Notes under the pieces: generated by a model | Seen by the model: the letters and a program-made list of their open reading frames with translations, nothing else | Databases searched by the model: none | What the model was told of the DNA's origin: nothing | Shown here: one piece after another, positions 7,763 to 26,812 of the stretch | How positions within the stretch are numbered: the first letter of the stretch is position 1 | Layout: each line of letters starts with the position of its first letter | Program-made: the position numbers and the translations under genes | NCBI RefSeq assembly: GCF_001642805.2 | Contig: NZ_CP016948.1 | Span: forward strand, 4,526,001 to 4,590,000 | DNA: 64,000 bases | Source of the DNA: Serratia surfactantfaciens | Lineage (GTDB): Bacteria; Pseudomonadota; Gammaproteobacteria; Enterobacterales; Enterobacteriaceae | Direction of reading: 5' to 3'

Positions 7763-7768
7763 CTTGTT

Positions 7769-10511: not shown

Positions 10512-11554
10512 CGGATAAACTCTTACCTCAACCACCAGCAGGTGAATTCCTGCTGTTCCAAAGCGAGGATGGTCGCGCACGCGTTGAGTGTCGCTTTCAG
10601 TCAGACACTCTTTGGCTCACCCAGGCATCCATGGCTGAGCTATACGATAAGGATGTTCGTACCATCAACGAGCATCTGATCAACATTTTTTCCGAAGGTG
10701 AACTTGGTCAAAATTCAACTATCCGGAAATTCCGGATAGTTCGCCAGGAAGGAAAACGTCAGGTTTCCAGAGAGATAGAGCACTACAGCCTCGAAGCCAT
10801 ATTGGCCGTAGGCTATCGTGTTCGCTCAGTTCGGGGGACTCAGTTCCGCCAGTGGGCCACGCAAACCCTACAGGAATATCTGATTAAAGGGTTTGTGATG
10901 GATGACGAGCGGCTGAAGAATCCGCCCGTTGGCTCTTCTGTGGTGCCCGACTACTTTGACGAGATGCTGGAACGTATCCGCGATATTCGAGCCAGCGAGC
11001 GGCGCGTCTATCTGCGTGTGCGGGAGATTTTCGCGCTGGCTGCTGACTACCAACCATCTCTGAAAGAGACTACCCTTTTCTTTCAGACCATCCAGAACAA
11101 GTTGCACTTTGCCTGCACCGGGCATACAGCTGCTGAGCTGATCCACCAGCGGGCAGATGCCAGCCAGCCTTATATGGGGCTCACCAGCTATAAAGGCAAT
11201 GACGTGCGAAAAGGCGATGTCACGGTTGCTAAGAATTACCTGATCCAAAAAGAGGTCAGTGAGCTGAACCGTGTGGTGAATATGTGGCTGGACTATGCCG
11301 AAGATCAGGCATTGCGTCGCCAGCAGGTCTTTTTGCAGGACTGGCAGGAGAAGTTGGATCAGTTCTTGCGGTTCAACGACCGTAATGTGCTCCAGGGCGC
11401 GGGCACTGTCAGTAAGAAAATAGCGGATGAAAAAGCTCAGGGTGAATATGCACGATTTGCAGAGCAGCGGCGTTTGTTAAAAGAGGCCGAGGGTGAGAAG
11501 GATATTACCGAGCTACTGCACTGGAAAGCCGACAAAGATAAGGGAACATCATGA
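10508..11554 (+). CDS. rhuM: RhuM family protein
   Basis: A 348-aa protein of the RhuM family, first named from Salmonella pathogenicity island 3, which is also inserted at selC. Recognisable features are the N-terminal DTLWLTQASMAELYDKD, the KRQVSREIEHYSLEAILAVGYRVRS block (about residues 78-102), and RGTQFRQWAT, which belong to the DNA-binding virulence RhuM superfamily. The biochemical role is not established. It sits between hsdS and hsdR with 4-base ATGA overlaps on both sides, so it is made with the restriction enzyme. The context suggests an accessory or regulator of the type I complex. Confidence 0.88.
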   Translation: MTDKLLPQPPAGEFLLFQSEDGRARVECRFQSDTLWLTQASMAELYDKDVRTINEHLINIFSEGELGQNSTIRKFRIVRQEGKRQVSREIEHYSLEAILAVGYRVRSVRGTQFRQWATQTLQEYLIKGFVMDDERLKNPPVGSSVVPDYFDEMLERIRDIRASERRVYLRVREIFALAADYQPSLKETTLFFQTIQNKLHFACTGHTAAELIHQRADASQPYMGLTSYKGNDVRKGDVTVAKNYLIQKEVSELNRVVNMWLDYAEDQALRRQQVFLQDWQEKLDQFLRFNDRNVLQGAGTVSKKIADEKAQGEYARFAEQRRLLKEAEGEKDITELLHWKADKDKGTS

Positions 11555-14500
11555 GCATGCAGATCGCGCCAAAATTCCAGGAAGAGTACAGCGCCAAGCT
11601 TCCGGCGCTGGCCCTCCTGAGTAATTTAGGCTGGACCTATATTTCACCTCTGCAAGCCTTGTCTGCGCGAGCAGGCAAGGTAGATCAGGTGGTCCTAAAC
11701 CAGATTTTGCGTGAACAGTTAGCCAAGAGGACATTTATCTTTGCCGGTAAAGAGCATGCCATTTCTGACAAAGCGATTGATAGCCTGATTGCCGAAGTTA
11801 ACAGTCCTGCATTAAACCAGGGATTGATTACTGCCAATGAGCACTTGTACAACCACCTGTTGTACGGCATTTCCGTGACGGAATTTATCGATGGCAAACG
11901 GGCTAACCCGACTATATCGCTGATCGACTGGAACAATCCGCAAAACAACAGCTTTGTTTTCACCGAAGAGTTCAGCGTGACACGTGCTAACGGCATTGAG
12001 GCACGCAGGCCCGATATTGTCTGCTTTGTGAATGGTATTCCGTTGGTCGTTATCGAGGCTAAGCGCCCGGACGGCAATGCTAAAAAAGGGCCGACTATTG
12101 ACGAAGGGATATCTCAAAGTCTGCGAAACCAGCGCCATGATGAAATTCCACGACTGTTTGCCTACAGCCAGATTTTATTGTCGATAAACGGCCATGATGG
12201 ACGTTACGGGACTTGCGGAACACCGACCAAATTTTGGGCTACATGGCGGGAAGAAGATATCACCGATCTTGAGATGCTAGCCTTAAAAAACCGCAAGCTT
12301 ACTGCGCAGCAGATTGATTCAATCTTTAGCCATCGTCCGGGTGCATGCCTGGAATGGTATAAGAAACTGATTGCAGCGGGTGAGCTGGCTTTAACGGGCC
12401 AGGACCAGCTGCTTATCAGCCTGTTGTTACCCGAACGTCTATTGGATATGGCTCGTTTCTTCACTCTGTTTGATAAGAAAGCCGGTAAGGTCATTGCCCG
12501 ATATCAGCAGGTATTTAGTATCAAACGGCTGCTACAGCGTATCGAAACGAAGAATCCTGATGGTAGTCGCAACGGTGGGGTTATCTGGCATACCACAGGT
12601 TCAGGTAAGTCACTGACGATGGTTTTCCTGAGCAAAGCGCTGATTCTGAGTGAAAATCTCAAGCAGTGTCGCATCGTAGTGGTGACCGATCGCATCGATT
12701 TGGAAAACCAGCTCAGTCGCACCTTTATCTCAACGGGGGAACTGACCGGTAAAAGGGATAAAACCGATGCCATCGCCACCTCTGGCAAACGTCTGGCCGA
12801 ACAAATAGGCAAGGGGGCTGAGCGCATTCTCTTCTCGTTGATTCAGAAATTTAACACGGCCACCCGCCTGCCCGAGTGCGTGAATACCAGCCCCGATATC
12901 ATTGTGCTGATTGATGAAGGCCACCGCAGTCACGGCGGCGAGAGTCACCAACGCATGAAGCTAGCTCTACCTAATGCGGCATTTGTTGCTTTCACCGGTA
13001 CCCCATTGCTGAAAGATGATAAGACCACGAATAAATTTGGTCCCATCGTTCATGCTTACACCATGCAGCGTGCGGTGGAGGACAAGACCGTCACTCCACT
13101 TCTCTACGAGGAGCGCCCGCCCGAGCTGAACGTGAATGAACGAGCGATAGATAGCTGGTTTGACCGTATCACCGAGGGGTTAACGGATAAACAAAAAGCC
13201 GATTTGAAGCGTAAGTTTGCTAATAAAGGGCAGGTTTATAACGCTGACGATCGCATCCACCTTATTGCGCTGGATATCGCCAACCATTTTGTCAAAAACA
13301 TCGACGATGGCCTGAAAGGGCAACTCGCCTGTGACAGTAAAGCAGCAGCGATAAAATACAAAAAGTATCTTGATGAAGCCGGGTTGTTTGAGTCTGCAGT
13401 GGTGATTAGTTCGCCTGACACGCGTGAAGGGAATACCGAGGTGGATGAATCTGGTATCCCTGATGTGACCAAATGGTGGCAAGATAACGTAGGCTCTCAG
13501 GATGAACAGGCTTACACACGTAATGTCATCGATCGTTTTGATAAAGATGATTCGCTGAAGCTACTTATTGTGGTTGATAAGTTACTTACCGGATTTGATG
13601 AACCCAAAAATGCCGTGCTTTACATCGATAAGCCTCTAAAAGGGCATAACCTGATTCAGGCAATAGCCCGTGTTAACCGCCTCCACCCTAAGAAAAAATT
13701 TGGTCTGTTAATCGATTATCGGGGCATCCTCAAAGAGCTGGATACCACCATTGAGGATTATCAGAAACTGGCATCCCGCACGCAGGGCGGTTTTGATATT
13801 GACGATCTGGTGGGGCTGTACGGCCAGATGAGTACGGAGTATAAGCGCCTTCCACAGTTGTATAAAAATTTGTGGGCGATTTTCGTCAGTGTAAAAAATA
13901 AAAACGATATTGAGCAGCTTCGTCAGGTGCTGGTGCCACGAACGGAAGAAAAGTACGGCGAAATGGTTGATGTTCATCTTAAAGTCCGTGAAGACTTTTA
14001 TGAGGCTCTCACACAATTTGCCAGCTGCCTAAAAGTGGCGTTGCAATCGGCTACCTTCTTTGAGGATAAGAGTTTCAGTGAAGAAGACCGCCAGCATTAT
14101 AAAGAGACGCTGAGGCAATTTACCAGCTTGCGCCAGCTTGTAAAGCAGGATGCCGGAGAAACGGTAGATTATGATCAGTACACCGAACAGGTTAAAAAGC
14201 TGCTGGATAAACATGTTGTTGGCGTAGAAGTCCGCGAGCCAGATGGGGTGTATGAAGTCAGCAAAATGGGACAGCGGCCCGAAGAGTGGAGCGAGGATAA
14301 AACCCGCAACGAAACGGATATTATCAAAACCCGCGTAACCCGCATGATTGAGCAGGATTTACGTGATGATCCTTATGCCCAGGAAGCCTTCTCGAAGTTA
14401 CTACGTCTGGCTATTGAAGAGGCGGAAAAACTGTTTGATCACCCTCTCAAGCAGTACATGCTATTTCGTGAGTTTGAGGAGCAAGTACAAGATCGGCGGC

Positions 14501-14829
14501 TGAACGAAATACCTGATGTGTTTGCCGGTAATCATCATGCGCAAGCTTACTTCGGCGTGTACAAAAAAGTGTTACCGGAGGTTTTTGCCGTTACCGATTC
14601 TCAGGTTATCGATAAATGGGTGAAGCTTGCTTTTGAAGTAGACCAGGCTGTTGATATCTCAGTGGCTGAGAACTCGATCAATCCGCAAAATATTGAGGCT
14701 GATATCCGCAAGAAGCTTCTACCGATGATGTTTAAAGAGTGTAAGGCAATCGGTGGCGGAATGGATCAGGCGAAAAAGATCGTGGAAATGATTGTCCAGA
14801 TTACCCGTGTAGGGCTGAGCGGAGTGTAA
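11551..14829 (+). CDS. hsdR: Type I restriction enzyme endonuclease / translocase subunit
   Basis: A 1092-aa HsdR. The N-terminal nuclease has a PD-(D/E)xK core with D155 (RRPDIVCF) and E169-x-K171 (VIEAKRP). The superfamily-2 motor has Walker A TGSGKS with K353, DEGH at 455-458, and helicase motif VI QAIARVNR near 710. It translocates DNA and cleaves at a distance when HsdS finds an unmethylated site. All catalytic residues are present, so it is probably active. It begins in a 4-base overlap with rhuM and ends 3 bases before the metallopeptidase gene. Confidence 0.96.
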   Translation: MSMQIAPKFQEEYSAKLPALALLSNLGWTYISPLQALSARAGKVDQVVLNQILREQLAKRTFIFAGKEHAISDKAIDSLIAEVNSPALNQGLITANEHLYNHLLYGISVTEFIDGKRANPTISLIDWNNPQNNSFVFTEEFSVTRANGIEARRPDIVCFVNGIPLVVIEAKRPDGNAKKGPTIDEGISQSLRNQRHDEIPRLFAYSQILLSINGHDGRYGTCGTPTKFWATWREEDITDLEMLALKNRKLTAQQIDSIFSHRPGACLEWYKKLIAAGELALTGQDQLLISLLLPERLLDMARFFTLFDKKAGKVIARYQQVFSIKRLLQRIETKNPDGSRNGGVIWHTTGSGKSLTMVFLSKALILSENLKQCRIVVVTDRIDLENQLSRTFISTGELTGKRDKTDAIATSGKRLAEQIGKGAERILFSLIQKFNTATRLPECVNTSPDIIVLIDEGHRSHGGESHQRMKLALPNAAFVAFTGTPLLKDDKTTNKFGPIVHAYTMQRAVEDKTVTPLLYEERPPELNVNERAIDSWFDRITEGLTDKQKADLKRKFANKGQVYNADDRIHLIALDIANHFVKNIDDGLKGQLACDSKAAAIKYKKYLDEAGLFESAVVISSPDTREGNTEVDESGIPDVTKWWQDNVGSQDEQAYTRNVIDRFDKDDSLKLLIVVDKLLTGFDEPKNAVLYIDKPLKGHNLIQAIARVNRLHPKKKFGLLIDYRGILKELDTTIEDYQKLASRTQGGFDIDDLVGLYGQMSTEYKRLPQLYKNLWAIFVSVKNKNDIEQLRQVLVPRTEEKYGEMVDVHLKVREDFYEALTQFASCLKVALQSATFFEDKSFSEEDRQHYKETLRQFTSLRQLVKQDAGETVDYDQYTEQVKKLLDKHVVGVEVREPDGVYEVSKMGQRPEEWSEDKTRNETDIIKTRVTRMIEQDLRDDPYAQEAFSKLLRLAIEEAEKLFDHPLKQYMLFREFEEQVQDRRLNEIPDVFAGNHHAQAYFGVYKKVLPEVFAVTDSQVIDKWVKLAFEVDQAVDISVAENSINPQNIEADIRKKLLPMMFKECKAIGGGMDQAKKIVEMIVQITRVGLSGV

Positions 14830-14832
14830 ATC

Positions 14833-15570
14833 GTGGATGAAAGAGTAATGAGCTTCATTTACGGTGATGAACGCATTACCTTCGAGTGTAAACCCCGATC
14901 GTTGGTGAATGGGCGCATTCTGATAAAAGTTCACCCCGACTGCCGGGTTGTGGTATCCGCGCCGCAGGATACCGATGACCAACAGATTCTGAATGCTGTT
15001 GAAAAGCGTGGGCGCTGGATCTATCAGCAGCTGAGGGATTTCCGTAAGCAGCTGGAATATATCACGCCACGACAGTATATCAGTGGCGAGAGCCACTATT
15101 ACCTGGGCAAACAGTACATGCTTAAGGTGATAGTGGCTCCCTATGAAGTTCAGGGCGTAAAAATGTTGCGCGGTAAGCTGGAAGTCACTTTACGCCATAA
15201 GAGTGCTGAAAAGGTCCTGCAGCTGCTGACTGACTGGTATAAGGCCCGTGCACGGGAAGTATTCGCCAGAAGGCTGACCGCTATGCTGGAGCAAGCGCTA
15301 TGGGTCAGTGACTCACCTCCATTGCGCATCCTCACCATGCAAACTCAGTGGGGGAGTTGCTCTCCTAACGGTCGGCTCACCCTTAACCCAAACCTGGTTA
15401 AAGCTCCCCGGGAATGCATCGACTATGTGATTTTGCACGAGCTCTGCCATCTAGCCGAGCATAACCATAGTGAACGGTTCTACCGGCTAATGGGGCAGGT
15501 GATGCCGGAGTGGGAAATTGTAAAAACGCGTCTGGATGAAATGGCGGGGATGATATTTTCTGATTTATGA
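14833..15570 (+). CDS. YgjP-like zinc metallopeptidase in the restriction operon
   Basis: A 245-aa protein of the YgjP/DUF45 (M48-related) family. The zinc motif HELCH has H202, E203 and H206, followed by AEHNHSERFYRLM with a further potential ligand, and the family signature TQWGSCSPNGRLTLNPNL precedes it. GTG 14833 follows GGAGTG of the hsdR end; ATG 14848 is the alternative. Peptidases of this group are repeatedly found beside type I hsdR. A plausible but unproven role is turnover of the restriction subunit, which would limit self-damage. It closes the operon; mrr begins 166 bases later. Confidence 0.87.
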   Translation: MDERVMSFIYGDERITFECKPRSLVNGRILIKVHPDCRVVVSAPQDTDDQQILNAVEKRGRWIYQQLRDFRKQLEYITPRQYISGESHYYLGKQYMLKVIVAPYEVQGVKMLRGKLEVTLRHKSAEKVLQLLTDWYKARAREVFARRLTAMLEQALWVSDSPPLRILTMQTQWGSCSPNGRLTLNPNLVKAPRECIDYVILHELCHLAEHNHSERFYRLMGQVMPEWEIVKTRLDEMAGMIFSDL

Positions 15571-15736
15571 TGTGGGGAGTGATATTTTCCCATAGTCAGT
15601 AAAATTGATGACAATGGTGTACATACTCACTTCCCATCGCGAGATGGAAGTACGCCAGAGTTGCTTAGCAACCAACTAATTTATAGATGGTTGGTTTAAC
15701 AATCGATTCACCAAAAACTTTATCAGGGATGTTTCT

Positions 15737-16651
15737 ATGGCCGTTCCGACTTACGATAAATTTATTGAACCTGTACTCCGCTTCCTGGCTGGTAAACCTG
15801 ATGGCGTTCCGGCTCGCGATGCGCACGAAGCGGCCGCTGACGCACTTAATCTTGATGATAATCAGAGAGCTGAAGTGATTGCCAGCGGTCAGTTAGTTTA
15901 TAAAAATCGGGCTGGCTGGGCACATGATCGTCTGAAGCGTGCAGGGTTATCGCAAAGCTTATCCAGAGGAAAGTGGTGCTTGACGCCAGAAGGAATCAAC
16001 TGGGTACAAGCCCATTCCCAGCCACTGACTGAAAATGAAGTAAACCATCTGGCGTTTGATTTCATGAATGTTAAGTTAAAGCAGCAACCAGATGCTGTTG
16101 ACCTTGATCCAAAACCATCATTACCGAATCAGGAAGAGTTAGCAAAGAGCAGCCCGGACGATCGTCTTGATCAGGCGCTAAAAGAGCTACGTGACTCTGT
16201 TGCTGACGAACTGTTAGAAAATCTGTTGCAAGTTTCCCCGGCACGTTTTGAGGTTATCGTTCTGGATGTTTTGCATCGTCTGGGTTATGGCGGGCACCGG
16301 GATGACCTACAACGCGTGGGGGGCACTGGAGATGGCGGTATAGATGGTATTATTTCGCTTGATAAACTCGGCTTGGAAAAGGTTTATGTGCAGGCCAAAC
16401 GTTGGCAGAACACGGTTGGCCGCCCGGAACTTCAGGCGTTTTATGGCGCGCTAGCCGGTCAAAAAGCCAAGCGTGGAGTGTTTATCACAACCTCCGGTTT
16501 TACTTCGCAGGCAAGAGATTTTTCCCATTCCGTCGAGGGTATGGTACTGGTTGATGGTGAGCGTTTGGTTCATTTGATGATTGAAAACGAAGTCGGCGTT
16601 TCCTCCCGTTTGGTTAAAGTTCCTAGGCTGGACATGGATTACTTTGAGTAA
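15737..16651 (+). CDS. mrr: Mrr family type IV restriction endonuclease
   Basis: A 304-aa protein, the same length as E. coli Mrr. The N-terminal half is a winged-helix Mrr_N domain (PTYDKFIEPVLRFLAG). The C-terminal half is the Mrr nuclease: RFEVIVLDVLHRLGYGG, then D203 (DGGIDGI) and Q219-x-K221 (VQAKRW), the PD-QxK form of the active site. E. coli Mrr cuts DNA with certain foreign methylation and responds to stress. Next to a type I system this resembles the immigration control arrangement of E. coli, where mrr and hsd genes are neighbours. The 166-base gap suggests its own promoter. Confidence 0.93.
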   Translation: MAVPTYDKFIEPVLRFLAGKPDGVPARDAHEAAADALNLDDNQRAEVIASGQLVYKNRAGWAHDRLKRAGLSQSLSRGKWCLTPEGINWVQAHSQPLTENEVNHLAFDFMNVKLKQQPDAVDLDPKPSLPNQEELAKSSPDDRLDQALKELRDSVADELLENLLQVSPARFEVIVLDVLHRLGYGGHRDDLQRVGGTGDGGIDGIISLDKLGLEKVYVQAKRWQNTVGRPELQAFYGALAGQKAKRGVFITTSGFTSQARDFSHSVEGMVLVDGERLVHLMIENEVGVSSRLVKVPRLDMDYFE

Positions 16652-16665
16652 CGGGTTAATCCGAG

Positions 16666-16683
16666 CCGGAGCGACAGCTCCGG
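16666..16683 (+). terminator. Hairpin after mrr
   Basis: CCGGAGC (16666-16672) pairs with GCTCCGG (16677-16683) over a 4-base loop, 15 bases after the mrr stop. The following TGATTTG is only moderately T-rich, but the hairpin is placed to end the rightward transcript. Confidence 0.65.
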
Positions 16684-17040
16684 TGATTTGTTCGAAGTGC
16701 TTTCTTTCTGAGGGTTGGTCTTCGTGCTTCTGAGTTTTTTATCCTTTGTATACTGCCATGTGTCTACCAGCCGCTGTAGTTGGTTATTTCGTATGTGCAA
16801 GGTGAACTCAGTTTGTTAATCGTTAGCCTCAACGACATTCTGCTTCTGCATCTTCTTATCCGCTTCAGCAAGAGACCTCATGCGCAAACGAATGACTTAG
16901 GTAGCGGAATGACGGAAACGGATTATGGTGCGTCTGCACCATATTCAATATCAAAATGTGCGGAAGCCTCTGGTGCGTTATCGCCGCTGAGACTCCAGAG
17001 CCGATGTACTTCCAGTACCTTAATGACGTCATCAATGCCT
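16684..17040. other. Non-coding gap between convergent defence units
   Basis: No convincing gene is seen. Short open frames here lack ribosome sites and family signatures. It separates the rightward mrr unit from the leftward HNH unit, so terminators for both are expected. The 8-bp palindrome TGACGTCA occurs near 17025. Confidence 0.4.
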
Positions 17041-17946
17041 TTACAGAGCCAGTTCCATCGGAAACAGCGCCTTGAATTCTGTTTCCAGGATGGCCAGGTG
17101 CAGATTGATATACGCTCGTGACATGGCTGACCATTCTCCCTGGCTGTCCTCATAAGCTGTTAATGACGCGATTTCAGCAACAAAATGGGCTTCAAGGGCA
17201 TGTCGTTCTGTCGGTTTGACTTGCGCAAGGCTGGAGGCGAGCCGACGAATACTTGTTACTTTTAAATTAATATCGACCAGTTTCTTTTTTCGTTTTTCCA
17301 GCAGCCGCTTGCGATTCAGCCCACACAGACTGATGGTCGTTTTTGCCCTCTCATCCAACGGTATAAGAAAAGGATAACCCAGTTGTGTAAAAATCCATTT
17401 TAAATGCCTGACAGGATTATCTTTGCACGGGTTCAGAAGTAAGGGGTGTTCAAGCTTTAATTTATGGCTGGGTCTGGTACACCGCACAGAGCCTTGCACT
17501 AACGGAAAATGATTCTGCTTCCCGCTTAATTGTTTTTCTTTTTCCAGATAAACCTGACCATCTGACGTAATGGCGTAATGTTGCTTTTTACGATGACTGT
17601 TACAGTCGCTGCAGCTGGGTAATAAATTATCCCAGTCAGCCGCAAGCCACCAATATCCAGGGTGTTTCGAAGAGTCGGTAACACCGCCTTTAGGACGATA
17701 GTGTTCAACGGCCATCGGCTGAGAGGCCGAGTAATCGGTTTCACAGTAGGCACATTTGTTGTGAAAGAGGGTATCTAATGCTTCAACAACATCAGGCGCT
17801 TTATAGACAGCAAAAGGGTAGACCGGTGTATCAGACGTCTTCTGGCGATAATAGGCTTTTGCTTTTTTTAACTCTGTCGCAGCAGCCGACTGGCTTCCTC
17901 TCAACGATGCCGGCTTTCTAACAAGATGCTTTTCAACAAAAATCAT
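17041..17946 (-). CDS. HNH endonuclease, PtuB-like partner of the ATPase fusion
   Basis: A 301-aa HNH protein. The zinc/HNH core has C65-x2-C68 (CAYCE), E81-H82 (VEHYRPKGG), N107 (ADWDNLL) and C112-x2-C115-N116 (CSDCN). This is the TIGR02646-like, PtuB-type HNH arrangement found with ATPases in Septu and some retron defence systems. The start overlaps the stop of the upstream HNH-ATPase gene by ATGA, so the two are translationally coupled. In Septu, PtuB supplies nuclease activity and the ATPase controls it. DNA as the target is inferred. The HNH block is clearly related to the one fused to the ATPase, so this locus carries two such nucleases. Confidence 0.85.
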   Translation of the reverse strand: MIFVEKHLVRKPASLRGSQSAAATELKKAKAYYRQKTSDTPVYPFAVYKAPDVVEALDTLFHNKCAYCETDYSASQPMAVEHYRPKGGVTDSSKHPGYWWLAADWDNLLPSCSDCNSHRKKQHYAITSDGQVYLEKEKQLSGKQNHFPLVQGSVRCTRPSHKLKLEHPLLLNPCKDNPVRHLKWIFTQLGYPFLIPLDERAKTTISLCGLNRKRLLEKRKKKLVDINLKVTSIRRLASSLAQVKPTERHALEAHFVAEIASLTAYEDSQGEWSAMSRAYINLHLAILETEFKALFPMELAL

Positions 17947-20087
17947 CGCTGCGCCTCCTGCAACCTTTTGACAATCATTCTTACCGCATCTTCATGAAGT
18001 TTCTCGCGTTCCAGAGGAGTCTGGCGTGCCTGTTCAACATAGCGAGCAATACCTTCTGCAATAGCGCGTTGCGCCGGATTTCCTGACAATGCCCTGTATT
18101 GGCTCAGTTCTCGCTCAATATCATGGATTAATTCCTGCTGTCGGGACGTTTGTTGTATTGTGCGCTCGTAACGATTGAGCAGATTTTCAAGCGTACCGTC
18201 CAGAGTGCTCAATAGTCCGAAATAGTCAGAGGTTAACAATTGTTCAATGTCCATACCCTGCACAAGAGGCAATTCACTCAATTCGACGACCTGCTGACTA
18301 GGATCCCGGAAAAGCACGCGTACTTCATGCTGGGTCAGACCTCGAAGGCACAGAGGATCATGTGTGGAAAAAATGAATTGGACACCTGGCATCGCCCGGC
18401 GTAATGCCGACACGACCTGAATCTTCCACCGGGGATGAAGATGCGTTTCAATTTCATCAATCAGTACGACCCCATGCGCAGCCTCAAGGCTTCCCCAGTA
18501 ATGGGTCATTCTGAACATTATATCGAGGCTCATGGCAAACAAGGACTGGTACCCGTCGCTCATCTTGCTGAGCGGCGTATCACGGCCATGAGCGCGAACC
18601 AGAATATTGCGATGAATGTCCCGTAGGAGAAACTCCCCCTGTTCTAGTGACAGGATTTCTTTCATTGCACGGGCAATAGAGGCAAAGAATTCATCATCTT
18701 TGTCCGCTAATTCGCTCGTCACATCCCGTAGCAGAGCTGTGGGATAAAACAGTGACTTCCCTACGGCAGTACCCCGGGTTCGTTCACAGAAATACCGGCG
18801 TGCACCGTAAGCGAGAACCATAAAGTCAGGCCAGTCATTGTCAGCAGACACGAGCCCTTCATCTGAAATCGTCAACATGCGCGTATCGCCTCCCTCCAGG
18901 TTGAGAGTAATGCTGGCAGATTTCATGTGGCTACGTTGCCAGCCTTCACGATCGCGTTGCAGGTAATTTTCGTAATCCAGGCGCAATCGAGTCCGTTGCT
19001 GTCGACTCATCAGCGTCAGGCAAATTCCCTGTAAAATACTGCTTTTCCCAGTGGAGTTTTCTCCCACTAATGCTACACAGGGGGCTAAGTCTTTTGGGGG
19101 GCTAATATTGGTAAAATCAAGAGTAAAATCTTCAAAACTCTTGAAATTTTGTAGTCTGATACCAGTTACGAATTGTGAGGCCAGACTACGACGCTTCTCC
19201 TTATTCGCCACGTTTGCCCAGTCTATTTTTTGCTTTGTCTCAGGAAGGGGGAAGGAAAAGTCAGACCAGAGGCGCATAAGTTCGTCGGCCGACAATGAAG
19301 AGTCCAGAACAGCATCAAAGGCTCGGGCAAACGTCGGAAGTGGTTTAAAGCGTAGATTTGTGTACTCACCAGCAACGATCCGCAACAGTGTATTGAGAAA
19401 GATCATTGTTACACCGGGGCGTTTCGTTTGTATGAAATAATATTCTGACGAACGAGCCTTTATGCACTGATCAAGTTCAGCGATTATATCTATCATTTCA
19501 TTTTCACGCTCATACCGCAGTGGTGCCCGGTTAAGCTGTAAAATTTCAATGGTGGTATGACCTTTCTCCGTGAGAGGTAACAATAAACCATCATGGCGGA
19601 TGCTTAGATGCTCACAGGGGTTATCGGCTGAGGGGTTCAGGAGTAACGTTTTTTCAGTTCTTTGCGCCTCTGACCAGGTACACTGGATCTGAGCCGGATG
19701 TCCATGCAGGGGAAACCAGTTTGATTTTGCCCGATTACATTCCTTACAGACCAACAACAGATTTTGCCATTGATAGGCGAACCATCCGTAATAATCTGGG
19801 GCTACTTGACGGTCAATACCAAACTGTGCCCCTCCGCGGGGTCGGTAATGTCCAATTTCATGAGTGTCAATAAGTTGTTCACACCAGGCACAACGTCCCT
19901 GAAATTCACGCGTCAACCTCAGGTGCACCTCGCTGTTATATAATAGTTCAGGATCAAACGGTGGGCGGGAAAGCATTCGTTCTGCGGGCAGTTGTTTGTA
20001 GTAATCTGCCAGCTTGCGTCGCTGTTCCCGGATTCTGGACGCTCTTAATGCTTCAGGTGGCACTCTGGATCTGACGATTTTTCTCAT
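17943..20087 (-). CDS. HNH-AAA ATPase fusion, Septu-like defence protein
   Basis: A 714-aa two-part protein. Residues 60-120 form an HNH domain: C66-x2-C69 (CAWCE), H80 (IGHYRPRGG), N109 (YQWQNLLL) and C114-x2-C117-N118. From about 300 onward it is an ABC-type ATPase of the PtuA/OLD/RecF kind: Walker A GENSTGKSS with K348, signature-like MSDGYQS near 510, Walker B LIDEIETHLHP with D544-E545, and the switch STHDPL. A C-terminal helical tail follows. PtuA proteins normally lack an HNH domain; here one is fused and a second is encoded separately. ATG 20087 (MRKIVRSRVPP) fits the family; GTG 20123 is an alternative. No retron reverse transcriptase is nearby. Confidence 0.88.
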   Translation of the reverse strand: MRKIVRSRVPPEALRASRIREQRRKLADYYKQLPAERMLSRPPFDPELLYNSEVHLRLTREFQGRCAWCEQLIDTHEIGHYRPRGGAQFGIDRQVAPDYYGWFAYQWQNLLLVCKECNRAKSNWFPLHGHPAQIQCTWSEAQRTEKTLLLNPSADNPCEHLSIRHDGLLLPLTEKGHTTIEILQLNRAPLRYERENEMIDIIAELDQCIKARSSEYYFIQTKRPGVTMIFLNTLLRIVAGEYTNLRFKPLPTFARAFDAVLDSSLSADELMRLWSDFSFPLPETKQKIDWANVANKEKRRSLASQFVTGIRLQNFKSFEDFTLDFTNISPPKDLAPCVALVGENSTGKSSILQGICLTLMSRQQRTRLRLDYENYLQRDREGWQRSHMKSASITLNLEGGDTRMLTISDEGLVSADNDWPDFMVLAYGARRYFCERTRGTAVGKSLFYPTALLRDVTSELADKDDEFFASIARAMKEILSLEQGEFLLRDIHRNILVRAHGRDTPLSKMSDGYQSLFAMSLDIMFRMTHYWGSLEAAHGVVLIDEIETHLHPRWKIQVVSALRRAMPGVQFIFSTHDPLCLRGLTQHEVRVLFRDPSQQVVELSELPLVQGMDIEQLLTSDYFGLLSTLDGTLENLLNRYERTIQQTSRQQELIHDIERELSQYRALSGNPAQRAIAEGIARYVEQARQTPLEREKLHEDAVRMIVKRLQEAQR

Positions 20088-20427
20088 GAGGTAATTATCA
20101 TTAAAAATGACAGGGTAATACACCGCGTGAGAGGTGTAAATCAGAGCTTGTACATTACCCCGGGTTCTGATAGATGAGCTTCCTCAAAAGCAGATCCAGA
20201 TCACATGCGGAATTCAGAAAACAATGAGAAAACTGAAATGTTACTGATCTGAGAAAGGTAGTGTCTGTAACGGTAACCTACGGTGAGCTCTGAGATAAAT
20301 AAAAGATCTACAGATGAACTGCGACATCTGATGCTGTTGATACCCACTGCGCAGAGGTAAAAGACTGAACATGCGACTTGCTAAGATTATCAGTGGTAAA
20401 TATTCCGCCGTGTATTGTATTTTCATA
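20088..20427. other. Non-coding gap upstream of the HNH-ATPase operon
   Basis: No credible gene is seen. The promoter of the leftward HNH operon and the end of the alpA transcript should both lie here. No retron-like inverted repeats or reverse-transcriptase remnants were recognised. Short open frames have no ribosome site or family motif. Confidence 0.4.
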
Positions 20428-20649
20428 TCAGTTAGTTCCACGTGAATCCGCGATACGCTCATACATCCAACTCTCCACCTCACTTTTCAGCCAGCGAGAG
20501 CTACGTCCTAGCTTAATTGGCTTCGGGAATTTGCCGTCTTTAATTAATTTGTAGAACCACTTGTCGCTCATGCCAGTATAGGTAGTGATGAAAGTCATGT
20601 CGATAAGCGGGTCTTCTGCGCAAAGGACGGATTTATTAGTAGTAATCAT
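20428..20649 (-). CDS. alpA: AlpA-family phage/satellite transcriptional regulator
   Basis: A 73-aa protein with the AlpA/MerR-like helix-turn-helix: FITTYTGMSDKWFYKLIKDG, then FPKPIKLGRSSRWLKSEVESW. These small activators control excision and integrase genes in P4-like satellites and islands. ATG 20649 is preceded on its strand by GGGAGAG at good spacing; the longer reading from 20706 adds an unrelated leader. In this island it probably regulates excision or the neighbouring Gp2-like gene. It lies about 14 kb from int rather than beside it. Confidence 0.92.
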   Translation of the reverse strand: MITTNKSVLCAEDPLIDMTFITTYTGMSDKWFYKLIKDGKFPKPIKLGRSSRWLKSEVESWMYERIADSRGTN

Positions 20650-20814
20650 GAAATCTCTCCCTCTGAAAATAAATAACGGGAGGACTCCGGCATGGCTAAA
20701 TGACACTGCACGCCGGAACTCCTTCAGAGGATTGGGATTGCCAGTAAAAAAATACCTGAGTGCCTTACAGAGAGGAATCAGATAGGCTGAGGTGAATCGT
20801 GAAATGGGGAGATA

Positions 20815-21384
20815 TCAGCGTTGGCTGCATCCAAAGTTACGTTCTCCATCACCAGTGACTTTGGTATGGTCTTTTGCAAGATATGAAGCCCGTACCAATG
20901 CCTCCTGTAGTTGCTCATTATTCCCTCGGTCAATCCAGTACACAGGGCTTTCCGGAAAATGTGCCAGTGTTGAATACTCTTGGGTACTCACTCGTAAGGC
21001 GCTACACCATGCCTGTTTGATTAACCCTGCTAGTGAAGCCGGATCGTTATAGTTACCTGCGGAACACCAGACTTCGCGATTAAGTAACAACACCACGTGG
21101 TAGTGCTTTTTACCGTTGCACTCTCCATATTCCCTTGCCCAGACATAACGCAAGTCGGTCATGCGTTTTCGGTTACCCTCGCGATGTTTACGTAGCAGGT
21201 ACGCTGTGATCTTTACTTTAAGGGAATCTATAAAGCGAGAGATAACAGCAGCATCTGAAGCTGCTTGAATATCGGGTAGTCGTAGGTCAACCCTCAGCAT
21301 TAATACTCGCGGATAAGCCTCAAGGGCATTCAGAAAAGTGTCGGTAATACGTTGTTGCCAGAAAGGATTAAAGGTGTAATTCAT
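20815..21384 (-). CDS. Inovirus Gp2 family protein
   Basis: A 189-aa protein of the inovirus Gp2 / YagK-YfjJ family, common in P4-like satellites and cryptic prophages. It has NPFWQQRITDTFLNAL at the start, RVDLRLPD, and a HxH-type motif in KKHYHVVLLLN that resembles the HUH replication-initiator signature. It ends with the family-typical YLAKDHTKVTGDGERNFGCS. ATG 21384 has GGAG upstream; the 21414 start has none. A replication role is suggested by the HUH-like motif but not shown. It is followed by alpA on the same strand. Confidence 0.88.
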   Translation of the reverse strand: MNYTFNPFWQQRITDTFLNALEAYPRVLMLRVDLRLPDIQAASDAAVISRFIDSLKVKITAYLLRKHREGNRKRMTDLRYVWAREYGECNGKKHYHVVLLLNREVWCSAGNYNDPASLAGLIKQAWCSALRVSTQEYSTLAHFPESPVYWIDRGNNEQLQEALVRASYLAKDHTKVTGDGERNFGCSQR

Positions 21385-21881
21385 TGTGTAAATCTCCAGT
21401 GGCTTGTTGTTCATATCAATGACTGGAGCTGTAAAAAAACACTCTAAAGAATAAGGTTTCAGGTAATAAAAACTGAGTGATGATTTTTCAGCCTGCCGAG
21501 ACTAAATCGTTTCTGATTACAAAAGGATTATGAAGGTAGATCCTATAGCTTTAAGCGTAATAGAGAGGAAGATGTGTCAGACATATATTACCAATCCGAC
21601 AGTCAGTGCTACGTACTGTGTATGCATATCTGGTCTATGTACCATCAATGCACTTCGGGCAGACCGCTCAGGCACTCTGGAGTTATCGTTTTATGTCAGT
21701 ACAGTTGGCTTATGTCATGAAAATGTCCTGTACCCCTCTAATGTAGAGGGTGGTTGTGTCATTTAAGGAACGTTTTTTCCATGTTTTTTCAGCTTTATTA
21801 CGTCATTTTTTCACGAAAAAACTTCATTAAAACTTGTTTTTACACTATCCTGAAAGGAAGGTTTCTAAAGGGAGAGGTGAT
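21385..21881. other. Regulatory gap between divergent Gp2-like and unknown genes
   Basis: No convincing gene is seen. CCCTCTA (21734-21740) and TAGAGGG (21744-21750) form a compact inverted repeat that could be an operator. The bases after it are AT-rich and precede the divergent gene at 21882. A 78-codon open frame at 21530 has no ribosome site and an unconvincing composition. Confidence 0.4.
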
Positions 21882-22877
21882 ATGAATTATGAACGTAATA
21901 TGATTTTAAAAAGGATGGAAATTAAATCTTCGTTGGAACTGGCGGGAGATAACCCAATGCTGGTAAAGGAATATCTTTCAACCTTTCCACTGCCCATTCT
22001 TAGGCGCGTATTAATTTATATCAACATGGCAGCAGCAAACTCTGCCTTCCCTAAGATAGCCGATAGCGCCCCGAAATTAATAGATTTCATTTTTTCTGGA
22101 GTTATTTCTGAGGAAATTAAATCTTCTTTCAATAAAATAGATAAACTTGTAAAAGCTGCAGAAGGTGACATTTTCTCTGAGGATTGTATTGCATGGCTGA
22201 AAAATGATATCGAGGCATGCCATTATTTCTGGTGGGGTTTAATACATCTCGAATGGAAGGGTTTGTTTAATTTGCTCAGGGCGGATAATATACATTGCTA
22301 TAGTGGTGTGGAGGACAAACAACGAGAGGTGTACGTTTCTGATACATTTGGCCTGCCCTGGCTTATAGCAGGACATAAGGAGCGCTATAAATCAATTTTG
22401 ATGTTGTTAAATTTGTTGCCATTTAAAAATACTGAAATAAATATTTTGGTTTCACATTTATCTTATAACTACAAAAAGTGCAAGGAAATATGCAAGGGTA
22501 AGGTAAATATCACCTCTTTGATAAAAAACAAAGAATCCGTTTCTTTTTCAATTAGCTACTTAAAGAAAAAGAATATATTCCTTCCTGATTTAGAATCTCT
22601 CACTGAACTTGATAATAAATATGCATTAATCACACAGCTTTATCTTCTGAGTGGAGGGGCTAAATTTAAAGAATTAGTCACCTCGCTGACTAAAGCCTGG
22701 TCACAGAAAAAAGTTCGTGAGAAAAGAAAAGAGGCGGATAAAAAACAGCCCGCCGAATTTCCCAGCCTGAGTAAAGAAAGTATAAGAATGCTTAAGCTCT
22801 TATCTAAAAAGCATAGTATGAGCCACGCTGAACTTATGGATCTGGCTGTGCTCTCCTTGTTCGAAGAACTTCGGTGA
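21882..22877 (+). CDS. Unrecognised 331-aa island protein
   Basis: I do not recognise this protein. ATG 21882 has GGGAGAGG 7 bases upstream. The codon use is AT-rich and unlike the core genes. It is soluble in appearance, with no signal peptide or clear membrane segment. The middle is rich in leucine, lysine and aromatic residues (HYFWWGLIHLEWKGLFNLL). A lysine-rich linker near 280-300 (KKVREKRKEADKKQP) joins to a C-terminal helical segment, LSKESIRMLKLLSKKHSMSH, which resembles a small DNA-binding or oligomerisation motif. It stands alone between the satellite genes and the YaaW cassette. Some kind of cargo or regulator is possible, but I infer no function. Confidence 0.75.
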   Translation: MNYERNMILKRMEIKSSLELAGDNPMLVKEYLSTFPLPILRRVLIYINMAAANSAFPKIADSAPKLIDFIFSGVISEEIKSSFNKIDKLVKAAEGDIFSEDCIAWLKNDIEACHYFWWGLIHLEWKGLFNLLRADNIHCYSGVEDKQREVYVSDTFGLPWLIAGHKERYKSILMLLNLLPFKNTEINILVSHLSYNYKKCKEICKGKVNITSLIKNKESVSFSISYLKKKNIFLPDLESLTELDNKYALITQLYLLSGGAKFKELVTSLTKAWSQKKVREKRKEADKKQPAEFPSLSKESIRMLKLLSKKHSMSHAELMDLAVLSLFEELR

Positions 22878-23095
22878 TTGATCTAAGAATCAGATATATA
22901 TCATCATAATGGATGACGGATAGCGAAAGCTCCAGGCTACTGTGTATGTCTTAGTCGCAGGCGGTACGGGTTTTTCATGACACTCAGTGTCGCATTTAAT
23001 CCCGTTAGCACAAAAACTCACCGTTTCAGATGACATATCCGTGCAACAGCCCCCCTTACAGTGTGACCTCTCACTACACTGACTGAGGAAGAACA

Positions 23096-23824
23096 ATGGC
23101 TGTCTACCGTAATGACCCCGATTTAAACCTGCTGGGCCAGTGCAGCAATGAAGAGCTGCAGCTACTGGTTTCTATTCTGACCACTGACCCTCGTGACGGC
23201 GACACCCGCTGGACAGAGAGCCTGACCTGCACCCCGGAATACCGTCTGCTGGCACCGGAACATCGGCGCTACTGGCAACTGATAGCGGCTGAGCTTCAGC
23301 GTTACGGGGCTAATACGCTGGTAAGTCTGATGAGGCTGGGGCAGGGCGTGACCTACCGGGAAATCCTCGGTGATGTTTGCGATAAACTTGATGTGAACTA
23401 CAACCTGAAAAGCACCACCGAGGCCATTGAGTTGTGCCTGCTGACGAAGGTGCTGGAGAAAAGCCTGGACCAGATGACACCGGAAGAACTGGCTACCTTT
23501 TCCCGCAATATGCAACTCGACCTCACCAATCCCACTCCTCAGCTCATTTTGATGGCAGTACAGGCCGCCATACGTACCTCCTCTCTAGCAGCACTGGAGC
23601 TCGCCACCGTACTGTCCGCCAGCGTCATTACCTCACTGGGGGGGATTGCCACCTGGGGCACGGTGGTGGTGGCATCGCGGGCGCTGTCCGTTATCGCTGG
23701 CCCCGCTGCCATTGCGCTTAGTTCGGCGTGGATGATTTCCGACATTGCCGGCCCGGCTTACCGGGTCACCATACCGGCCTGCATCATCGTAGCCTGGCTC
23801 CGGCAGCAACGTCTTTCTCGTTAA
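23096..23824 (+). CDS. YaaW-like (UPF0174/DUF3944) protein
   Basis: A 242-aa protein resembling E. coli YaaW. It starts with YRNDPDLNLLGQCSNEELQLLV (DUF3944), continues with EHRRYWQLIAAELQRYGANTL and YREILGDVCDKL, and ends with a hydrophobic region and AYRVTIPACIIVAWLR. The C-terminal 90 residues contain two or three likely membrane helices. No biochemical function is known for the family. It heads a same-strand run with a WYL regulator and two exported proteins. The ribosome site is GAGGAAG just before ATG 23096. The 218 bases upstream probably hold the promoter. Confidence 0.85.
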   Translation: MAVYRNDPDLNLLGQCSNEELQLLVSILTTDPRDGDTRWTESLTCTPEYRLLAPEHRRYWQLIAAELQRYGANTLVSLMRLGQGVTYREILGDVCDKLDVNYNLKSTTEAIELCLLTKVLEKSLDQMTPEELATFSRNMQLDLTNPTPQLILMAVQAAIRTSSLAALELATVLSASVITSLGGIATWGTVVVASRALSVIAGPAAIALSSAWMISDIAGPAYRVTIPACIIVAWLRQQRLSR

Positions 23825-23884
23825 TCCATTTTTTCACTGCCAGCAGATGACTGGTACCAATATTTTCTGCTGGGAGCACACACC

Positions 23885-24562
23885 ATGCCTGAACAGGGAC
23901 ACCGCTATGATCGGTTGGCCAGCCGTCTCGCCATACTGGTAAGTCGCCTCTTTATGGGCGAATCACTAAGCGTCAGACAACTGGCTCAGGAGTTTGGCGT
24001 CTCTGAGCGTACCGTTCAGCGCGACCTGCGTGAGCGCCTGCGTTATCTCGACACCGAATATTCCAGTGGAAGCTTCCGGCTTCTGGATGCTCGAGGTCCC
24101 TTTCGCACCAACAGCGACATTCTCCGCTTTGCCCGGATAACCAGCGTGGCGCATTACTTTCCTACTCTGGATCCCAGACTGCTATCGGTGTTGCTCGACA
24201 GCGGTCAGGATTCCCCCTGTATCATCTGGAATGCCCCACCACGTCAGGCACCTGCGTTGTTTGGCGGTTTCCAGGTCATCGTTCAGGCCATCATCCGTAA
24301 CCGCCGTATTCACTTTCTGCATCAGGGTCATCAGCAATCTGCTGTGGCCCCTTACCAGCTTATCTGTCTGGACGGGGAGTGGTACCTGGTGGCCGTATCG
24401 AAAGATCGCATTCAGGTATTCACCCTTTCAGCCATCACCGATGTGGTGATGACCCTCAGCGGTTTTGTGCGAAACAGCCATATCACTCGCATTTTTCAAG
24501 ACCCGAGGTTCATTCAGGCCCTGCCGCATTATCAATATATCAGCGGGCTCATCACGGAATAA
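23885..24562 (+). CDS. HTH-WYL transcriptional regulator
   Basis: A 225-aa regulator. Residues 10-60 form a DeoR-like helix-turn-helix (ESLSVRQLAQEFGVSERTVQRDLRERL). Residues 130-210 form a WYL ligand-sensing domain (VAPYQLICLDGEWYLVAVSK, with the WYL triad). Family members often bind nucleotides or nucleic acid fragments and repress defence or mobile-element genes. Position suggests control of the neighbouring yaaW-like gene and the downstream exported proteins. Confidence 0.9.
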   Translation: MPEQGHRYDRLASRLAILVSRLFMGESLSVRQLAQEFGVSERTVQRDLRERLRYLDTEYSSGSFRLLDARGPFRTNSDILRFARITSVAHYFPTLDPRLLSVLLDSGQDSPCIIWNAPPRQAPALFGGFQVIVQAIIRNRRIHFLHQGHQQSAVAPYQLICLDGEWYLVAVSKDRIQVFTLSAITDVVMTLSGFVRNSHITRIFQDPRFIQALPHYQYISGLITE

Positions 24563-24618
24563 GCCCGAATTCCCGTCCGTCAGGACAACTTGTTTTTACT
24601 CACAAAAGGAATGCATCC

Positions 24619-25083
24619 ATGAATAAATCATCACTCAGCGTGTTGGTACTGGTCTGTGGCCTGGTTCCGGTCATGGCGCAGGCTTTCGGAAATAAGGACA
24701 CCTGGTCCAGTGGTTGGGGCCAAGGCGTATCAGAGTTTGTTATCAAGGGGAAAGGTCAGTCGCAGTTATATCTATCCTGTGAGAATTATGGTTCACAGCC
24801 GGCCACGGTCATATTTACGGACGCTAATGGGCATGAAGTCAGTATGGATGAGGATAAAAACCTTCAGGTCAGAATTGACGGTGGAGAGCCCATTGACATC
24901 AGTGAGTCTGACAGTCGTGTCGGCAGTAATAACCTGGTGCTGGCCTGGACACAGTTGCGTAACGGCAAACAGGTCTCGGTATCCGGTGAGGGGGTTAAGC
25001 CAGCCATCTTCACGCTAGCCGGGGCGGCGAAGGTGCTGCCTGAGTTTGGCACACACGGCTGTGTGGCAAAAGCTTCACTCTGA
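24619..25083 (+). CDS. Small exported protein, unknown
   Basis: A 154-aa protein with a clear signal peptide (MNKSSLSVLVLVCGLVPVMAQA, cleavage near residue 22). The mature domain is rich in strand-forming residues and has two cysteines (LSCENYG and THGCVAK) that could form a disulphide in the periplasm. I do not recognise the family. AAAGGAATG lies before the start. It belongs to a same-strand run with the WYL regulator and another exported protein. Confidence 0.75.
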   Translation: MNKSSLSVLVLVCGLVPVMAQAFGNKDTWSSGWGQGVSEFVIKGKGQSQLYLSCENYGSQPATVIFTDANGHEVSMDEDKNLQVRIDGGEPIDISESDSRVGSNNLVLAWTQLRNGKQVSVSGEGVKPAIFTLAGAAKVLPEFGTHGCVAKASL

Positions 25084-25169
25084 TTTATACCTGTATTTAC
25101 TGTCTGTTGCTGGTAACGAATGATGATATTCGTGTTCCGGCGATACGTTACTCTTGAAAGGAATACGCT

Positions 25170-25529
25170 GTGAAAATCAAACAATGGTTGATACCCGCAC
25201 TGTTTTTACTGTCTGCTCCGGCGTTGGCCGAGCCAACTTCCCCAATAAGAGTGGAGACCAGTGATTATGTTCATCCTGCCGGAACACGCTATGCCACAGT
25301 AGTGGTCACCTCGCTGGATGACAGTGTGAAAGTTGAAAATATTGACGTTAATCGGGGTAATTGTCGCATCGACAACAAAAAGTTTATGTCCTCCGCTAAC
25401 AAGGAAACCATTCTGCCGATCACTCTGCGCTACGGGCAGTCTGTCAAAGTGAATTTTTATAATGATTGCGTGGCTTCGGAAGTGGTAGTCACCACCGACA
25501 AAGGGGCGTGGCGTTACACCTATAACTGA
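25170..25529 (+). CDS. Small exported protein, unknown
   Basis: A 119-aa protein with a signal peptide (MKIKQWLIPALFLLSAPALA, cleavage before EPTSP). The mature part has two cysteines (GNCRID and NDCVAS) and alternating strand patterns, suggesting a small disulphide-bonded beta domain. The start is GTG, with AAAGGAA about 9 bases upstream. It follows the other exported protein by 86 bases. Both look periplasmic and their functions are unknown. They may act together, but that is inference from adjacency. Confidence 0.72.
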   Translation: MKIKQWLIPALFLLSAPALAEPTSPIRVETSDYVHPAGTRYATVVVTSLDDSVKVENIDVNRGNCRIDNKKFMSSANKETILPITLRYGQSVKVNFYNDCVASEVVVTTDKGAWRYTYN

Positions 25530-25610
25530 GTAGTCTCTCTGTTTCATCTCCCTCCATAAAGGACATCACATCACCAACGGGCTGCCGTCAGGCAGCCCGG
25601 AGCAGACCCT

Positions 25611-25823
25611 ATGATTTTTCTGAAAATGCTGGTAACCGCTCTAGGTCAGGTTCTGACCTGGTACGGCGGACAGCAGGCCCGGCAGTTTATTGAAATCCGA
25701 TTCCGTCAGGCCGGTCACGATGACGACAGCATAGATGCAGCCAGAGAAGCAGTCACGCTGCTGGTGACTGCGCTGATAACGGCCCTGATGGCGCAGATAT
25801 TACGGATTCTGGACAACTACTGA
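25611..25823 (+). CDS. Small protein with C-terminal membrane helix
   Basis: A 70-aa protein. The C-terminal REAVTLLVTALITALMAQIL is one likely membrane-spanning helix, and the N-terminal MIFLKMLVTALGQVLTWYGG is a second hydrophobic stretch. It is unrecognised. It lies between the exported proteins and the DUF932 gene on the same strand. An upstream hairpin (GGGCTGCC near 25579 with GGCAGCCC) may separate it from the preceding gene. Small membrane proteins beside toxin modules can be effectors, but nothing here shows that. Confidence 0.55.
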   Translation: MIFLKMLVTALGQVLTWYGGQQARQFIEIRFRQAGHDDDSIDAAREAVTLLVTALITALMAQILRILDNY

Positions 25824-25923
25824 GCCGCCGTCTGCTGCAACGACCACTGAACCTACACATCGCCCCTGTCTCCTCACGGAGCAGGTTTTTTTGTTTTATG
25901 CCCTAAAATCTAAGGAAATTGTC

Positions 25924-26742
25924 ATGAAATTAGCCAGCCGCTTCGGAGCGGTAAACCTCGTTCGCCGTGACCGACCACTAACCCGTGATGAACTGGCGCA
26001 CTATGTACCGAGCGTATTCAGCGAAGAAAAGCATGCATCCCGCAGTGAACGCTATACCTACATCCCGACGATTACCCTGCTTGATAACCTAAAACGTGAA
26101 GGTTTTCAGCCGTTCTTTGCTTGCCAGACCCGCGTGCGCGATCAGAGCAAGCGAGAGCATACCAAACACATGCTGCGTCTGCGCCGCGAAGGCCAAATTA
26201 CCGGCAAGCAAGTGCCGGAAATTATTCTGCTTAACAGCCATGATGGTTCAAGTTCATACCAGATGCTGCCAGGTCTATTTAGATCGGTTTGCCAAAATGG
26301 ACTGATTTGCGGTGAGAGTTTTGGTGAGGTGCGCGTGCCGCATAAAGGCAATGTGGTGGAGAAAGTGATTGAAGGGGCTTACGAAGTACTGGGGATATTT
26401 GATCGAGTGGAAGAGAAGCGCGATGCCATGCAATCAATGATGTTACCACCACCGGCTCAACAGGTGATGGCGAAAGCGGCATTAACCTATCGCTTTGGTG
26501 AAGAACATCAACCGGTGACGGAATCGCAGATCCTTTCCCCACGTCGTTGGCAGGACGAGAGCAACGATCTCTGGACCACGTACCAGCGAATTCAGGAAAA
26601 CCTGATTAAAGGCGGGCTGTCGGGGCGAACGACCAAAGGTAAGCATGCTCATACTCGCGCCGTCAAAGGTATCGACGGGGATGTGAAGCTCAATCGTGCT
26701 CTGTGGGTGATGGCCGAGAATATGCTGCAGCTTGCTTCATGA
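25924..26742 (+). CDS. DUF932 domain protein
   Basis: A 272-aa DUF932 (phage/plasmid-related) protein: FGAVNLVRRDRPLTRDEL, YIPTITLLDNLKREGFQPF, HKHMLRLRR-like segments and LLNSHDGSSSYQML. It is standard in enterobacterial islands upstream of radC-cbeA-cbtA modules. ATG 25924 has AAGGA 7 bases upstream; the earlier frame start at 25891 lacks one. The function is unknown; some relatives are linked to recombination of mobile elements. It is 70 bases from radC. Confidence 0.88.
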   Translation: MKLASRFGAVNLVRRDRPLTRDELAHYVPSVFSEEKHASRSERYTYIPTITLLDNLKREGFQPFFACQTRVRDQSKREHTKHMLRLRREGQITGKQVPEIILLNSHDGSSSYQMLPGLFRSVCQNGLICGESFGEVRVPHKGNVVEKVIEGAYEVLGIFDRVEEKRDAMQSMMLPPPAQQVMAKAALTYRFGEEHQPVTESQILSPRRWQDESNDLWTTYQRIQENLIKGGLSGRTTKGKHAHTRAVKGIDGDVKLNRALWVMAENMLQLAS

Positions 26743-26812
26743 ATCTTTTAATCCTCACTCCCTTCAAGCCCTGTCGATAAACCGGCGGGGCTTTATATTT
26801 TAAGGAACTGAT

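What the first reader, a model, noticed from the sequence alone, without database searches (positions are those of the whole stretch)
17041..20087. Two-gene defence-like operon with a tandem pair of related HNH nucleases, one fused to an ABC-type ATPase
The 714-aa protein joins an HNH domain (C66-x2-C69, H80, N109, C114-x2-C117) to a complete ABC-type ATPase (K348, D544-E545). A second HNH protein of the same type (C65-x2-C68, H82, N107, C112-x2-C115) is translated by ATGA coupling. Known Septu has one ATPase (PtuA) without HNH and one HNH protein (PtuB). A fused plus a free copy suggests a distinct architecture in which two nucleases are controlled by one ATPase. The position in an integrase-bounded island beside hsd and mrr supports a defence role.
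Basis: partly seen in the sequence, partly recalled or inferred. Interest (0 to 1): 0.85.

Follow-up and report, generated by a model that had tools for sequence, protein, structure and literature searches.

The report
Septu defence with fused pseudo-nuclease
A two-gene bacterial anti-virus system of the Septu type in which the ATPase carries an extra, mostly worn-out copy of the nuclease that its partner gene supplies intact, so it probably has one working cutter and one built-in stand-in, not two cutters.

Summary
In detail: genes, coordinates, motifs and the ATGA overlap all check out. The pair is a Septu (PtuA/PtuB) relative. Model residues 305-696 superpose on E. coli PtuA from its residue 1, so residues 1-304 are an extra PtuB-like domain. 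The 301-aa protein has the PtuB fold. PADLOC's PtuA1 profiles already include the fused form, so the layout is catalogued, but I found no paper describing it.

The 'two nucleases' reading is not supported. In 28 of 28 loci with an intact fused gene a free HNH gene follows directly, and the free copy keeps Glu-His-Asn-Asn in 28 of 28. The fused copy keeps its four zinc cysteines in 28 of 28, but acid, His and last Asn together in only 3 of 28. The window's copy has Gly79 instead of the acid. The fused domain is nevertheless under purifying selection, also where the His is lost (dN/dS 0.07-0.10). ATPase and free nuclease diverge together (Mantel r 0.88).

Best reading: a rare, horizontally moving Septu variant with one active nuclease and a fused, selected, largely non-catalytic HNH paralogue as docking or regulatory half. 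New variant of a known kind.

The parts
17943..20087 (-). gene A: fused PtuB-like HNH domain + PtuA-type ABC ATPase, 714 aa
   Evidence: AlphaFold2 mean pLDDT 81.7; best PDB folds are PtuA
19188..20087 (-). fused HNH (PtuB-like) domain, about residues 1-300, zinc Cys4 kept, acid replaced by Gly79
   Evidence: canonical PtuA starts at model residue 305
19848..19853 (-). codons of Gly79-His80: the acid of the HNH motif is absent in the window copy
18228..19175 (-). ABC ATPase head, about residues 305-620 (Walker A GENSTGKS with K348, D544-E545)
   Evidence: Pfam AAA_21/AAA_15
17041..17946 (-). gene B: free HNH nuclease of PtuB type, 301 aa, catalytic E81-H82, N107, C115-N116 intact
17943..17946 (-). 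ATGA stop/start overlap, translational coupling
   Evidence: overlap of 4 nt in 13 and of 1 nt in 7 of 28 intact loci
17954..17959 (-). AGGAGG Shine-Dalgarno-like site of gene B inside the end of gene A
   Evidence: sequence
5062..29173 (.). genomic island at selC carrying the pair: integrase, type I R-M, RhuM, mrr, alpA, cbtA
   Evidence: 14-nt repeat 5062-5075 / 29160-29173; lower G+C

Best explanation
A Septu-type anti-phage system in which the nuclease part is shared between two HNH paralogues. The ATPase subunit (PtuA-like head, residues 305 on) carries at its N-terminus a PtuB-like HNH domain that keeps its zinc fold but is mostly non-catalytic. The free 301-aa PtuB, made by coupled translation, is the catalytic nuclease. 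As in Septu, ABC heads would assemble and hold PtuB inactive until infection changes nucleotide or nucleic-acid state; PtuB then cuts phage DNA or a tRNA. The fused pseudo-HNH most likely provides the docking or pairing half that positions or restrains the free HNH. Shown: homology, folds, layout, residue asymmetry, purifying selection, joint divergence of the two genes. Inferred: defence function, nuclease activity of the free copy, loss of activity of the fused copy, the docking role, trigger and target.
Against: In the window's nearer relatives the His itself is kept in 24 of 27 fused proteins and all three residues in 6 of 27, so some fused HNHs may still cut. The window's two closest loci (L004, L005) have the full set. 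No complex was modelled, so docking of the free HNH on the fused one is untested. Several dN/dS pairs have saturated dS. No phage data.
Confidence: 0.6

Rival explanations
1. Two active nucleases under one ATPase: fused and free HNH both cut, for example opposite strands or different targets.
For: Zinc Cys4, N109 and, in the window, H80 and N118 are kept; L004, L005 and L014 keep the full set, as do 6 of 27 database proteins.
Against: Catalytic set broken in 25 of 28 fused copies but 0 of 28 free copies; window lacks the acid.
Confidence: 0.15
2. The fused HNH is a sensor or decoy: a nuclease-shaped domain that binds nucleic acid or a phage inhibitor and triggers the ATPase, rather than a dock for the free nuclease.
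For: Selected, mostly non-catalytic domain that is less conserved than the free HNH, as a domain that meets phage factors might be.
Against: No direct evidence for binding; joint divergence with the free HNH (r 0.84) fits a protein-protein contact at least as well.
Confidence: 0.2
3. The fused HNH is a decaying leftover of a gene fusion with no role.
For: Loss of catalytic residues in many loci.
Against: dN/dS 0.056-0.241 in 8 of 10 pairs and zinc residues in 28 of 28. Of 35 loci examined, one (L054) has a fused-clade-type ATPase without the HNH part, beside an IS element.
Confidence: 0.05
4. A housekeeping DNA-repair ATPase with nuclease partner, not defence.
Against: Rare and patchy: 3 of 295 family, 2 of 394 order, 1 of 369 class, 5 of 398 phylum genomes, own genome included each time (lower bounds, few candidates were scored per genome); lies on islands and plasmids, several with defence genes; the strong DNA similarity to two relatives covers the operon and stops at its ends.
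Confidence: 0.04

Closest known systems
Septu, E. coli PtuA/PtuB (PDB 8eea, 8ee4, 8sux)
   Same: ABC ATPase gene with adjacent HNH gene; both folds match
   Different: the PtuA chain starts where the window's residue 305 lies; it has no HNH domain, so one HNH per system instead of two
PADLOC Septu models PtuA1 PDLC00288/00291/00292 and PtuB1 PDLC00328
   Same: match the window's proteins nearly end to end; one of the three is the best match of 9 of 9 fused relatives tested, in 7 of 9 as one stretch over most of the protein; at 726-773 positions they include the fused HNH
   Different: filed together with unfused PtuA; the passages of the PADLOC paper that I read (PMC8565338) do not mention the fusion
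Retron type I-A effectors PtuA/PtuB (Ec78/Eco7, Ec83; PADLOC Septu type II)
   Same: same ATPase and HNH families, folds match as well as those of Septu
   Different: work with RT and msDNA; no RT domain among 20 island proteins scanned; NCBIfam PtuA/PtuB cut-offs missed by far
ptuXYZ (PMC11980606)
   Same: PtuA-like ATPase with nuclease partners
   Different: DUF262 protein and PIN-YoeB partners; the paper says PtuX does not resemble PtuB (passages read)

Membership tests
Septu in PADLOC's sense (type I) | PtuA1-type ATPase profile | tested here: met
Septu in PADLOC's sense (type I) | adjacent PtuB1-type HNH gene | tested here: met
Septu in PADLOC's sense (type I) | anti-phage activity | not testable with these tools
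   only context: defence neighbours
characterised Septu as solved for E. coli (8eea) | PtuA is an ATPase without a nuclease domain | tested here: not met
   model residues 305-696 align to PtuA residues 1-462; residues 1-300 are a PtuB homologue
characterised Septu as solved for E. coli (8eea) | PtuB with intact H-N-H catalytic residues | tested here: met
   free protein E81-H82, N107, N116; 28 of 28 loci
characterised Septu as solved for E. coli (8eea) | PtuA:PtuB oligomer (6:2 in the table of PMC12948488) | not testable with these tools
   no complex prediction available
Retron type I-A (Septu type II) | reverse transcriptase beside ptuAB | tested here: not met
   no RT Pfam domain in 20 island proteins scanned, the pair included
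Retron type I-A (Septu type II) | NCBIfam PtuA/PtuB equivalog cut-offs | tested here: not met
   114.5 of 500 bits and 46.3 of 150 bits

The most novel reading that the evidence does not exclude
An anciently duplicated, selected pseudo-nuclease fused to the ATPase forms an obligate HNH:HNH pair with the active free PtuB and gates it: a pseudoenzyme-controlled Septu subtype found from Bacillota to Enterobacteria, in which the ATPase carries one inert half-site per subunit and only the second gene brings the cutting half.
Probability: 0.35. Interest if true: 0.65.

Novelty: new variant of a known kind. Interest (0 to 1): 0.5.

Why it matters
Solved PtuA:PtuB complexes have fewer PtuB than PtuA subunits (2:1 and 4:2 by PDB titles; 6:2 in PMC12948488), and how the nuclease is held in check is central to these systems. 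Here a mostly disarmed PtuB is tied to every ATPase subunit and kept under selection, so the non-catalytic roles of PtuB (docking, restraint, pairing) can be tested apart from cutting. It also shows that profile-based defence catalogues merge architecturally different systems under one name.

Tried and rejected
Similar DNA in complete E. coli genomes: none, megablast and blastn. Genome-contig scan with the window protein: only two close loci. Viral-contig scan with the alignment: three loci, two of them alike in coordinates and scores. Class-wide search: only the own genome, 1 of 369. Phage records: 7, only ATPase fragments, at most 24% of the query covered. Viral structure library: the named rows among the 50 listed are mostly ABC, SMC, MutS or other ATPases. 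The second-look alignment of the fused model listed no PtuB chain; its residues 1-180 were barely tested there. Single origin of the fusion: fused ATPases lie on one side of a branch against 8 unfused ones with support 41 and, with longer unfused sequences, against 7 with support 63, so not shown. HNH tree: fused and free copies separate only weakly, unfused PtuB fall on both sides, and the fused HNHs of L023 and L024 stand apart with support 100. Literature: no description of a PtuB-PtuA fusion or pseudo-HNH in Septu seen in the listings of searches, nor in the passages read of six papers; the primary papers on Septu and retron-Septu structure and on retron classification are not held, so absence in print is not established.

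Rows dropped before the 28-locus count: of 35 loci given, two with a split fused gene (L020, L032), one truncated without partner (L046), one ATPase without HNH beside an IS630 (L054) and three without a fused HNH (L051, L053, L057); L015 left out as near-copy of L013. Of 101 plasmid records matching, 40 were listed and 25 fetched. I first called all 7 weaker free-HNH places unfused from short flanks; on refetching longer flanks 6 are, and one (G428) is cut by the contig end.

Full report
What is there. On the minus strand, 17943-20087 encodes 714 aa and 17041-17946 encodes 301 aa, joined by ATGA with an AGGAGG site 7 nt before the second start. Most homologues start at the equivalent of the ATG at 20087 rather than the upstream GTG. 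The pair sits in a 24-kb island with lower G+C between the selC tRNA and a 14-nt repeat of a selC stretch, with a tyrosine integrase, hsdM/hsdS/hsdR with a RhuM gene between hsdS and hsdR, mrr, alpA, a YagK/YfjJ gene, a WYL regulator, a RadC-like gene, cbtA and DUF4942.

How widespread. The fused form is rare and patchy: 3 of 295 genomes of the family (E up to 1e-40), 2 of 394 of the order (1e-50), 1 of 369 of the class (1e-50) and 5 of 398 of the phylum (1e-60), the window's own genome counted in each and one of the five (G524) truncated. These are lower bounds, as few candidates per genome were scored. Intact copies lie on plasmids of Rhizobium, Sinorhizobium, Sphingomonas, Gluconobacter, Janthinobacterium, Roseovarius, Paracoccus, Phaeobacter, Klebsiella and, in Bacillota, Priestia. 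The nearest relatives are in Serratia, Klebsiella, Enterobacter and Citrobacter. In two of them (L004 Serratia, L005 Enterobacter) DNA similarity of 84-85% covers the operon (17020-20252) and stops there; stretches similar to the window's alpA and other island genes lie elsewhere in both loci, the alpA-like one about 1.5 kb upstream. This fits a moving cassette in related islands.

Layout and co-inheritance. I gave 35 loci to the paired analysis. In 28 the fused gene is intact, and in 28 of 28 a free HNH gene follows at -62 to +8 nt, counted from the first possible start codon: 4-nt overlap in 13, 1-nt overlap in 7. The 7 others are two split fused genes, one truncated one without partner, one ATPase beside an IS630 without the HNH, and three without a fused HNH. 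Identities between loci in the ATPase and in the free HNH correlate at r 0.88 (0 of 2000 permutations as high), so the pair travels as a unit. Conversely, the free-HNH profile in 398 genomes found 12 places: 4 free partners, 1 fused copy, and 7 other HNH genes beside PtuA-like ATPases. With longer flanks 6 of these 7 ATPases are free of an HNH domain (one of them split in two frames, one with another N-terminal stretch) and one is cut by the contig end. All 7 HNH proteins keep acid, His and last Asn.

The asymmetry. Aligned on the window's residues, the free copies have Glu81, His82, Asn107 and Asn116 in 28 of 28. The fused copies have all four zinc cysteines and N109 in 28 of 28, but an acid in 13, His in 10 and the last Asn in 12; all three in 3 (L004, L005, L014). 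In 27 database fused proteins His is kept in 24, acid in 14, all three in 6; 30 of 30 free-type proteins keep all (the sets overlap partly). So in the window's own neighbourhood it is mainly the acid and the last Asn that vary, while in the ten-row group of the ATPase tree that holds most Rhizobium, Paracoccus, Roseovarius and Phaeobacter rows the His is Arg in 8 of 10, Tyr and Leu in the others. The window has Gly79-His80. That the acid before the His and the last Asn bind the metal in HNH enzymes is recalled knowledge, not a result here. The His state needs 3 changes on the ATPase tree.

Selection. Pairwise dN/dS of the fused HNH is 0.056-0.241 in the 8 of 10 pairs where it could be computed; dS was very high in some of these. 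In the group without the catalytic His two pairs with moderate dS give 0.101 and 0.072 (L028-L055, L055-L056), as low as the free HNH there (0.117, 0.093). A domain that has lost catalytic residues and is still under purifying selection most likely has another job.

Defence context. Besides the window's R-M and mrr genes, PADLOC or Pfam find a Mokosh MkoC and an MmeI-like enzyme at the G144 locus (L047), HerA and a type IIG enzyme at L004, a type I methylase beside the pair at L005, and E1-E2 and SAVED proteins at L050. Against this, at L048 the tested neighbours were an integrase and a PIN protein, and at L049 the two tested had no Pfam hit. Not all neighbours were tested. On plasmids, record annotations name a Shedu nuclease (L017), a retron RT (L030), a ThiF protein with a nucleotidyltransferase (L033) and others near the pair, while some loci have ordinary metabolic neighbours (L016, L022).

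Mechanism. Septu EcB88 needs the Walker residues of PtuA and the H-N-H of PtuB and cleaves tRNA-Tyr (PMC13096335, passages, and the start of its abstract); [quoted passage not shown] In PDB titles PtuA outnumbers PtuB (2:1, 4:2). The fused variant adds a PtuB-like domain to every PtuA. I think it holds or pairs with the free, active PtuB; a sensor or decoy role is the main rival. Neither was tested.

Novelty. PADLOC's three PtuA1 profiles of 726-773 positions cover the fused clade, so the genes would already be called Septu. I saw no text that describes the fusion or the pseudo-HNH (searches; passages), but key papers are not held.

Noticed in passing
L021, L028, L031, L032, L055 (downstream of the pair): A patatin-like phospholipase gene follows the free HNH gene within 12-33 nt on Rhizobium and Paracoccus plasmids: a possible third component.
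   Followed up: no
L053:1-5495: Ruegeria pomeroyi megaplasmid: CHAT-domain gene, then a 992-aa protein whose PtuA-like ATPase match lies in its second half, then a PtuB-like HNH gene; no PADLOC hit at E 1e-60 for the 992-aa protein.
   Followed up: partly
L023:3830-6142, L024:3830-6115, L052:3827-6136: The fused HNH of this Rhizobium group scores 198-242 bits on the free-type profile, against 33-115 for the other intact fused HNHs: a possible replacement or second fusion.
   Followed up: partly
L030:6964-7977: A retron St85-type reverse transcriptase gene lies next to the fused/free pair in Priestia megaterium, on the opposite strand.
   Followed up: no
window 7148-7762: A short extra HsdS-like ORF (204 aa) precedes hsdM, and a RhuM gene (PADLOC PDC-S05) lies between hsdS and hsdR.
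   Followed up: no
L054:2563-5428: Mesorhizobium: IS630 transposase just upstream of a PtuA-like ATPase that lacks the HNH part, free PtuB-type gene following.
   Followed up: no
L062:2939-4585: An unfused PtuA-like ATPase with some 110-170 extra N-terminal residues that are not HNH, beside a PtuB-type gene.
   Followed up: no
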